From contig CM067318.1 in the NCBI GenBank assembly GCA_034231615.1, forward strand, positions 32,195,723-32,259,722: a stretch of DNA of 64,000 bases. Reading direction: 5' to 3'. Each line of letters opens with the position of its first letter. The first letter of the stretch is position 1. The position numbers and the translations under genes were made by a program. This DNA comes from Meghimatium bilineatum (Eukaryota > Mollusca > Gastropoda > Stylommatophora > Philomycidae). Shown piece by piece: positions 47,015 through 48,640 of the stretch. The notes under the pieces are model-generated. The model was not told the origin of the DNA. It did not search any database and was given only the letters and a program-made list of their open reading frames with translations.

Positions 47015-47685
47015 GCGAACCTAGGAACACGGCAATGGAGTTTTCTTAATGGCTGGTAACACACATAATACCACACACAAATCCACGTTTCAATATCCTT
47101 TTTGGGGTTTAAATCTTGTTCTTAGACAGGCAGATTTCTGCAACAGTATAACAAACACTGGAACACTCACAGGAGTTTCCAGAATATATTTTAAATTATT
47201 GTCTTAGATTTAATCGATAATAGGTACTAGCTGCAGCAAAATTGAAACCCAACAGACGAAGCTTGGGATATGGTAATGACGTTTTGTTATTTACTGGTAA
47301 CACAAATAGACGTTTCGACCAAACGGCCTTTATCAAGAACACATTCACAATATAATACGTCGAGTACGAATGGCACTATTGATGTTAATGTCCACGTGAC
47401 TGAGCTAAATATAGATACATTTTGGAAGAGTAATATCTAGAAGGTCTGAGGTGAAACATGAACAGATAATAGACAACTCACCCATTTAGTGATCAAACAA
47501 AATAAACATTAAAATTACAACAACAGAATATCTACTCGTACGACTGACGAGCATTGATCTCAAAGGGCTCTATTGAGCCAACTTGATAGAAGAAACGGCT
47601 CTAAGGTGCGTGTCGGGTACGCCCATCTGAGACTCAGAACTTAATGACCGTCACATGAGTATCACGATCACCCCGATGGTTCGTC
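47015..47685 (-). mobile_element. Penelope-like element, minus-strand copy, 5'-truncated
   Basis: This copy is homologous to the 3' half of the plus-strand copy next door. Shared landmarks are ATGATACTCATGTGACGGTC versus GGATATTCATGTCACGACC, GCGTTTCTTCT-like then ATCAAGTTGGCTC, ATCAATGCTCGTCAGTCGTA with TAG, the motif TTCTTGATAAAGGCCGTTTG then GTCGAAACGTC (47309-47339), GTGTTACCAGTAAATAACAA and TTTTGCTGCAGCTAGTACCT. Beyond the 3' part a decayed second copy of the GAAACG...GTGTTACCAG region follows (47030-47100), so the tail is partly duplicated. It is truncated at the head-to-head junction near 47686. Confidence 0.65.
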
Positions 47686-47689
47686 ATTG

Positions 47690-48640
47690 AAGTGGCCAGC
47701 AACAGGAGTACCAGTCTTGTTTTTGATGCTGTACAGATGTTGACAGACTCGGTCGGCGATAGATTAAATCCTATCACTCTCGCCTATATACGCCATGGTG
47801 CAACACTGCTTGCATGTTATATCGTAGTTTCAAGCAAACATTCCACCCCACAGCTATGCTGTCCGTCATGTTCTTTTCTGATACGTTCCTCTTCAGTCGG
47901 ATCCCAAGACGTGTAAGGTGTTATGTGACCCTCCTCTGTTTATTTAACAGAAATCATATGCAATCTTTGTACCGTAACGTACATAAGCGAGACTGGTGCA
48001 AGGTTCGAAGACCAAATACTAAGAACGTGTACAGCATCAGAAGCCAGACTTGTACTCATGTTGCTGCCTACTGACACGGACCATCAGAGTGTACAGGATA
48101 TTCATGTCACGACCATTATGTTATATTTGTCAGATTACCGGATCCGACTCACTCTTGAGGGCCGTTGCATCTATCAATTTGGCTCGGAATCCTTTAGTAT
48201 CAATGTCCGTCAGTCCTACGGGTAGATATACAGTTGTTCCGTCATTTTTCTGTATGTTTTGCTTTATGGATGTTTGGGTGTGTTTTGTCAACTTTCTGTT
48301 CCTGTTATTTCACTTCTGACCTAGCTTTTTCCTCTTCCGGGTTGTATCTATAATTAGCTCTGCCATGTGAACGTCAATAATGCCGTTATTACTTTTATTA
48401 TATTGTGAATGTTTTCTTGGTAAATGTCATTTGGTCGAAACGTCAATTTGTGTTACCAGTGATCCTATTTCAAGTTTCGTCTGTTGGATTTCAGTTTTGC
48501 TGCAGCTAGTACATATTATCATTTAAAACTAAGACAGCAGTTCTAAAATATGATATATTCTGGAAACCCCCGCGAGTGGTATAGTATTTGTTATGCTGTT
48601 ACGGAAATCTGCCCAAGAACCAGATCTTAACAGAAACGGA
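47690..48640 (+). mobile_element. Penelope-like element, plus-strand copy
   Basis: A 5'-truncated copy that retains the C-terminal endonuclease-coding part (47929-48225), about 180 bp of untranslated sequence, the motif TTCTTGGTAAATGTCATTTG then GTCGAAACGTC (48413-48444), GTGTTACCAGTGATCC, GTCTGTTGGATTTCAGTTTT and GCTGCAGCTAGTACATATTA. It is arranged head to head with the minus copy. Penelope-like elements are known for 5' truncation and complex inverted or partial tandem arrangements. No reverse-transcriptase domain remains in the window. Confidence 0.7.
47929..48225 (+). pseudogene. GIY-YIG endonuclease domain of a Penelope-like element
   Basis: An open stretch of about 98 codons between a TGA at 47926 and a TAG at 48223. 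It reads VYLTEIICNLCTVTYISETG, then ARFEDQILRT, ASEARL, later DIHVTTIMLYLSDYRIRLT and SINVRQSYG before the stop. Cys-x2-Cys followed by TYI-x-ETG is the diagnostic start of GIY-YIG domains in Penelope-like elements, where TYIGETG is usual. Here the Gly is Ser (TYISETG). There is no start codon because the 5' part is lost. The end is supported by the minus copy, which keeps the equivalent INARQSYE and stop. The upstream Cys-rich linker may continue in another frame (47830-47925). Confidence 0.7.

What the first reader, a model, noticed from the sequence alone, without database searches (positions are those of the whole stretch)
47015..48640. Head-to-head Penelope-like copies with a readable GIY-YIG domain
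Two 5'-truncated copies of one element face each other with a junction near 47686. The plus copy keeps a 98-codon GIY-YIG part (C-x2-C, TYISETG). The minus copy keeps only the 3' half. Both share the same stop region, untranslated tail and motif. Penelope-like elements are known for inverted and partial arrangements, so this may be one complex insertion rather than two independent ones.
Basis: partly seen in the sequence, partly recalled or inferred. Interest (0 to 1): 0.7.

Follow-up and report, generated by a model that had tools for sequence, protein, structure and literature searches.

The report
Decayed head-to-head Penelope-like retroelement insertion
Two broken copies of a Penelope-like jumping gene lie head to head here and share a piece of neighbouring DNA, which suggests that one messy insertion made both, in the way this class of element commonly inserts.

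Summary
The window lies in an unnamed 1.61-Gb, 32-contig genome. At 47013-48646 two decayed, 5'-truncated copies of a Penelope-like element (PLE) face each other. It misplaced the junction (about 47830-47842, not 47686) and missed that the minus copy also keeps the GIY-YIG core. The 98-codon plus frame is open, but its middle is out of register and Pfam does not see it. Relatives are seen: 12 of 14 aligned members hit GIY-YIG at E<=1 (best 6e-7).

The arms are not independent insertions. Both run past the element's 3' end into the same ~127 bp, which genome searches found only at these two places. They share no excess of private mutations, so the duplication dates from about insertion time.

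In 57 loci (window included) opposite neighbours were head-to-head in 18 and tail-to-tail in 1. The 9 pairs with both outer ends well anchored each had one tailed and one untailed end; two weaker ones agree. Seven of 10 tested pairs have target duplications; the window has none significant. The kind is known; the end asymmetry is the useful part.

The parts
47013..47089 (-). Outermost left piece: partial second copy of the element's 3' repeat (pLTR-like), ending at the 'short' (untailed) 3' end
   Evidence: 47011-47067 repeats 47251-47308; window 47021-47093 maps to element coordinates 3511-3583; end called short, anchor score 22. The right limit overlaps the next part by a few bases
47090..47216 (-). 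Shared 3' extension, minus-arm copy
   Evidence: Alignment of the arms. 47090-47211 against 48528-48646: 113 columns, K2P 0.218. Genome search with 47095-47208 gives 2 places, both in the window
47217..47829 (-). Minus arm: GIY-YIG core with one stop, end of the frame, 3' UTR, 'long' (tailed) 3' end
47830..47841 (.). Head-to-head junction, about 12 bp that fit neither arm well
   Evidence: Alignment with other copies
47842..47952 (+). Piece of the region between RT and endonuclease (TFHPHSYAVRHVLF...), followed by a gap of about 200 bp relative to other copies
   Evidence: Alignment with other copies; 201 bp in L066
47953..48519 (+). Plus arm: decayed GIY-YIG part, stop at 48223-48225, 3' UTR, 'long' (tailed) 3' end
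   Evidence: (tail score 32, but anchor score only 9)
48520..48646 (+). Shared 3' extension, plus-arm copy, read here as host flank
   Evidence: genome search with 48530-48646 finds only the two arms

Best explanation
This is a dead remnant of one compound insertion of an endonuclease-bearing Penelope-like element. Shown: two decayed arms, 5' ends together, 3' ends outward, with a ~127-bp sequence found nowhere else after the 3' end of both. Inferred: the endonuclease cut both target strands and the reverse transcriptase primed a cDNA from each side, one from the inner (untailed) and one from the outer (tailed) start site. Their free ends were then joined, as in the other head-to-head pairs of this genome. 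At this locus the short left piece (about 47013-47089) would be the untailed side and the plus arm the tailed side. During the same event, or soon after, a template switch copied the plus arm and ~127 bp of its right flank, inverted, in between, making the minus arm.
For: The extension gave 2 candidates of 2, the two arms, with either copy as query. It ends about where the left 3'-repeat piece begins. No excess of shared private changes: 3 against 1.9 expected, with 48 and 49 private changes in 408 columns. Divergence is alike in UTR (0.219) and extension (0.218) and within the range of the star-like subfamily. Elsewhere in the genome: 17 of the 56 loci other than the window hold a head-to-head pair and 1 a tail-to-tail pair. 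One long and one short outer end in 9 of 9 pairs with both anchors good, and in L033 and L070 with one weak anchor each. Target duplications beyond shuffles in 7 of 10 tested pairs. In vitro, a PLE protein from Anolis cuts and extends both strands and starts reverse transcription at two adjacent sites bounding the tail (PMC11167929, parts 1-2 of 4 read).
Against: The window has no significant target duplication (TAAAAC: 143 of 2000 shuffles reach it). Both main arms have long ends; the short end is only on the left fragment. The Anolis study saw no difference in start site between the two strands, so a rule of one site per side is not shown in vitro. In three head-to-head loci (L019, L034, L056) the second arm shows no recognisable 3' end in the stretch held. 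The flank-copy step has no second example: of 68 flanks tested, the one strong match at the element's end (L047) is a young insertion into a pre-existing palindromic repeat. The plus-arm gap ends within about 15 bp of the minus arm's inner end, an unexplained coincidence. The arms are not each other's nearest relatives.
Confidence: 0.55

Rival explanations
1. Read-through source: both arms were reverse-transcribed from RNAs of one source copy that ran on into its own downstream DNA (the extension); the source has since been lost. It is still one event, two-sided priming without a flank-copying step.
For: The extension sits after the 3' end in both arms, with divergence like that of the UTR. 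Captured host spacers between a PLE and a further pLTR are reported in rotifers (PMC3846280, passages).
Against: No source locus with the extension was found in the held assembly. The possible target duplication is weaker at these outer ends (ACAG, 1079 of 2000 shuffles).
Confidence: 0.25
2. A PLE copy inserted once and was inverted-duplicated with its flank by host DNA repair some time later.
For: The symmetric arms include flanking DNA.
Against: The arms share no excess of private mutations, so any such step came very early. Only about 12 bp at the junction fit neither arm, so hardly any host DNA lies between them.
Confidence: 0.12
3. Two independent insertions happened to land head to head.
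For: The arms are no closer to each other than to other copies. The subfamily is abundant (2857 first-look candidates, 40 scored).
Against: The shared extension, found only in these two arms, and the head-to-head bias in the genome, 18 against 1.
Confidence: 0.03
4. A head-to-head pair inserted at the centre of a pre-existing palindrome whose arms are the extension.
For: In L047 a PLE did insert into a palindromic repeat.
Against: No copy of such a palindrome was found elsewhere. It leaves the left 3'-repeat piece unexplained and would make both outer ends long, against 9 of 9 pairs.
Confidence: 0.05

Closest known systems
Endonuclease-bearing Penelope-like elements of Adineta vaga (Pen2a_Av and relatives; PMC3846280, passages read)
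   Same: Inverted 3' repeats at both ends, head-to-head as the most frequent inverted arrangement, 8-10 bp target duplications, a 31-bp tail on one of the inverted repeats, captured host spacers
   Different: There the authors favour self-priming on an antisense template and cite palindromes at the junctions. One antisense template copied to its end should give both arms the same 3' end (my inference), whereas here the ends differ; I did not test junctions for palindromes. The window copy is decayed and has an extra inverted arm with flank
Poseidon of Anolis carolinensis (PAc; PMC11167929, parts 1-2 of 4 read)
   Same: GIY-YIG endonuclease after RT; two adjacent reverse-transcription starts that bound the tail
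   Different: PAc has a hammerhead ribozyme; Rfam finds none in window 46000-49500 or in 14 loci of this family. Activity was not tested here; the window copy is broken
LINE-1 twin priming (recalled, not looked up)
   Same: Inverted arrangement made in one insertion
   Different: Twin-primed LINE-1 keeps one 3' end; here both arms carry a 3' end

Membership tests
Penelope-like elements (endonuclease-bearing) | Reverse transcriptase domain | tested here: met
   In a relative, not in the window, and below the curated cut-off: L070 frame of 316 aa, RVT_1 E 3.6e-4, 20.8 bits against 29.6; L038 frame 0.083; a third frame none. YIDD in the L070 frame. The window arms are truncated before it
Penelope-like elements (endonuclease-bearing) | C-terminal GIY-YIG endonuclease in the same frame as RT | tested here: met
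   12 of 14 aligned members hit PF01541 at E<=1, best 6.2e-7; the window member does not. L059 runs from RYIDD to TYIGETGKRLADRF in one frame, though that frame alone scores GIY-YIG at only 0.14
Penelope-like elements (endonuclease-bearing) | C-x2-C between GIY and YIG (recalled feature) | tested here: met
   CNLC in the plus arm, CKQC in the minus arm, CKRC in most aligned relatives
Penelope-like elements (endonuclease-bearing) | Partial tandem or inverted copies (pseudo-LTRs) | tested here: met
   Of 57 loci, window included, 18 with a head-to-head and 4 with a tandem pair
Penelope-like elements (endonuclease-bearing) | Optional 30-40 nt tail at the 3' end | tested here: met
   33 long and 28 short among the 61 of 68 called ends with anchor score 18 or more
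Penelope-like elements (endonuclease-bearing) | Target site duplication | tested here: inconclusive
   7 of 10 tested head-to-head loci have one; the window does not reach significance
Penelope-like elements (endonuclease-bearing) | Hammerhead ribozyme | tested here: not met
   No hammerhead family at E<=5 in window 46000-49500 or in 14 of 71 loci. It is common but not universal in PLEs (recalled), so it is not used as a bar
Penelope-like elements (endonuclease-bearing) | RT phylogeny with PLEs/telomerase | not tested
   No RT tree was built

The most novel reading that the evidence does not exclude
Head-to-head PLE insertions are made by two separately primed cDNAs, one from each side of the cut target, that obligatorily start at the two different reverse-transcription sites (one tailed and one untailed end per insertion). 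The window adds a case in which the process also copied target flank. If so, the simple antisense self-priming model is wrong for these pairs.
Probability: 0.45. Interest if true: 0.6.

Novelty: new member of a known kind. Interest (0 to 1): 0.35.

Why it matters
How PLEs integrate is unsettled: the 2024 in vitro study (parts 1-2 of 4 read) says that steps after first-strand synthesis are yet to be validated. A genome with thousands of first-look candidates, in which the readable head-to-head pairs carry one tailed and one untailed end and mostly a target duplication, lets the self-priming and two-sided-priming models be tested by counting. The window locus itself matters little: it is a dead, old remnant.

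Tried and rejected
Pfam on the 98-aa frame and three neighbouring frames: nothing relevant. PDB sequence search with the endonuclease alignment (best E 0.56, an exosome protein) and with the RT frame (none at E<=1): no help. Rfam for hammerheads: none. Looking for shared private mutations as proof that the arms are sisters: not found (3 against 1.9 expected, rank 474 of 734 pairs). I keep this as evidence on timing, and it also means that the arms' common origin rests on the extension alone. The tree does not join the arms as sisters.

One apparent second case of flank copying (L047) was rejected after a close look: the flank belongs to a palindromic repeat into which a young copy inserted. 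The other rows outside the window start 27 nt or more into the flank; by their coordinates L017 and L054 are local palindromes inside their own flank, and L042, L055, L069 and L070 were not followed up. Because of L047, the rows L047, L051 and L058 (isolated pieces around element position 3457-3524; L051 and L058 not inspected) are doubtful in the orientation count; without them it is 16 head-to-head, window included, and 0 tail-to-tail.

Limits of the count. 14 of the 71 loci were left out before counting: repeats of places already held, or L021, a near-duplicate of L020. Loci were chosen as best hits to the window's own sequence, so counts describe copies with a preserved 3' end. The -6 gap printed for the window itself is set by my own reference cuts and is not used for the junction; several other kept loci (L004, L012, L015, L027, L038, L050, L059) also served as references. 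The L070 pair is seen only in the longer 6-kb stretch. In one search I chose the end motifs by eye after seeing the flanks, and the match in L020 lies 6 nt off the chosen end; L033 was not tested.

Full report
What is there. The window is G000:C21:32195723-32259722 of a 1,612,235,226-base assembly in 32 contigs; the organism was not identified. A BLAST of the stretch against the window gives plus 48028-48646 against minus 47735-47090, 72% over 660 columns, E 2.6e-97. A more permissive alignment carries the homology to about 47840 and shows a shared TAG stop, UTR and tail. Translating the inner part of the minus arm gives NYDITCKQCCTMAYIGESDRI*SIADRVCQHLYSIKNKTGTPVAGHF, so the minus arm also keeps the endonuclease core. 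Against other copies (six long ones and L028) the minus arm's homology ends at about 47829. The plus side begins at about 47842 with a piece from the region before the endonuclease, then lacks about 200 bp (201 in L066), then resumes at about 47953. The 6-bp overlap that my own maps print for the window comes from how I cut the references and is not evidence.

The 98-codon frame. It is open, and it finds the family in the genome: 150 of 150 scored places match at E 3.7e-7 or better, the window's own two arms among them, out of 5741 first-look candidates. Pfam alone sees nothing in it. In the family alignment its middle does not fit, because the matching residues (VYSIRSQTCTHVAAY) lie in another frame. 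It is a decayed coding remnant, not a readable domain.

What family. Of the 14 aligned members, 12 hit PF01541 at E<=1 (best 6.2e-7), the window member not. Of four longer frames scanned, L054 scores 20.5 bits against a cut-off of 22.6, one of L059 scores 12.9, and two score nothing. L059 has one 300-aa frame from RYIDD through the thumb region to TYIGETGKRLADRF, with the rest of the endonuclease after one stop. L070 has RVT_1 at 3.6e-4, below the curated cut-off. RT followed by GIY-YIG, with inverted and tandem 3' repeats, tails and target duplications, is the described anatomy of endonuclease-bearing PLEs (PMC3846280, passages; PMC11167929, parts 1-2 of 4; PMC8969392, passages). No hammerhead was found by Rfam in window 46000-49500 or in 14 of the 71 loci.

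Not two independent insertions. Copies with a preserved 3' end mostly stop at one of two positions, a short one and one about 38 nt further. Both window arms go on past the long end for about 127 bp and still match each other (47090-47211 against 48528-48646: 113 aligned columns, K2P 0.218, 0 of 500 shuffles reach the score). Among the 71 fetched loci, none outside the window matches more than short stretches of this extension (17-20 nt at E 0.2 or weaker; the L007 hit runs about 25 nt into it from the tail). Genome searches with either copy return 2 candidates of 2, the two arms. The second arm was found at 77-78% identity, so other copies of similar age should have been seen, though the tool warns that absence is not proof. 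On the left, the extension ends about where a partial second 3' repeat begins, and that repeat ends at the short site.

When. Body K2P between the arms is 0.258 (488 columns; coding 0.322, UTR 0.219). In a tree of 57 sequences, the two arms among them, the old subfamily looks star-like, and the arms sit in one loose group of seven (support 0.75) without being sisters; for the minus arm the plus arm is the third nearest of 56, for the plus arm the minus arm is the fifth. In 408 columns with a clear majority base among 39 old sequences they have 48 and 49 private changes and share 3 (1.9 expected; rank 474 of 734 pairs). If one arm had been copied from an already decayed other arm they would share many. 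The duplication therefore belongs to the time of insertion or very soon after.

The genome as a control. Of 71 fetched loci, 57 are independent places, the window included. Of these, 18 hold a head-to-head neighbour pair, 1 a tail-to-tail pair and 4 a tandem pair; 30 have a single block (categories can overlap). 18 of 19 has a two-sided binomial p of 7.6e-5, and pairs within 100 bp are 14 of 14; without the window it is 17 of 18 (p 1.4e-4) and 13 of 13. Three rows (L047, L051, L058) rest on isolated 3'-repeat pieces, in L047 clearly part of another palindromic repeat; without them it is 16 to 0, window included. Of the 17 head-to-head loci other than the window, 11 have both outer 3' ends called. 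Nine have good anchors on both sides and each has one long and one short end; L070 and L033, with one weak anchor each, agree. In the other six an end is outside the stretch held or not recognisable; in L019, L034 and L056 the second arm simply fades before its 3' end. With 33 long and 28 short among 61 good ends, nine mixed pairs of nine have a chance of about 0.002 and ten of ten about 0.001. Target duplications beat the shuffles in 7 of 10 tested pairs (L017, L020, L024, L042, L057, L064, L069: at most 5 of 2000 shuffles and 1 of 90 mismatched pairs) and not in L011, L031 and L070; the ends were set by eye. The window's best candidates are TAAAAC (143 of 2000 shuffles) or ACAG (1079 of 2000), so none is claimed.

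How it most likely works. Shown by others in vitro: an Anolis PLE protein cuts and extends both target strands and starts reverse transcription at two adjacent sites inside the RNA that bound the tail; the same study saw no difference in start site between the strands (PMC11167929). Shown here: pairs in which the two outward ends use the two different sites. Inferred: each head-to-head insertion is two cDNAs, one primed from each side of the cut, joined by their free ends. A hairpin copied from a single antisense template, as proposed for rotifers (PMC3846280), should give both arms the same 3' end; that prediction is mine, not the authors'. The inner ends of the two arms differ by 8 to 866 element positions among 15 pairs (limits are those of my references), which either model allows. 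The rotifer authors rest their model on palindromes at the junctions, which I did not test. For the window I infer a canonical pair, the short-ended left piece and the long-ended plus arm, with the minus arm added as an inverted copy of the plus arm and its right flank by a template switch. A lost read-through source would explain the extension nearly as well.

Novelty. The element and its arrangement are a known kind. Five paper searches were made; none of the passages I read states the one-long-one-short rule as a count, though the rotifer paper says that the tail is optionally present on one of the inverted repeats. I do not claim that it is unpublished: most subscription papers, and the 2021 PLE paper looked for, are not held.

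Noticed in passing
window 3313-3439 and 12912-12956: Two more small fragments of the same element's 3' region, both on the plus strand.
   Followed up: no
L020 and L021 (G000:C21:11170344-11173711 and 11090334-11093701): The same head-to-head pair occurs twice about 80 kb apart on one contig, mapping alike, which looks like a segmental duplication or an assembly duplication.
   Followed up: no
L047:973-1515 and 2188-2253: A palindromic repeat of nearly 600 bp whose arms hold a piece resembling the PLE 3' repeat (element position about 3458-3522), into which a young PLE copy inserted with an apparent target duplication (TAGTTATAGTCT, by eye). L051 and L058 hold similar isolated pieces; it may be a PLE-derived foldback family.
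   Followed up: partly
window 47953 and 47829: The plus arm's internal gap ends within about 15 bp of the element position where the minus arm's homology starts; no explanation found.
   Followed up: partly
window 46077-46445 and 48811-49094: A 36-bp tandem array (10.2 copies) to the left of the insertion, and a degenerate CTA/CTG-type microsatellite with a run of C before it to the right.
   Followed up: no
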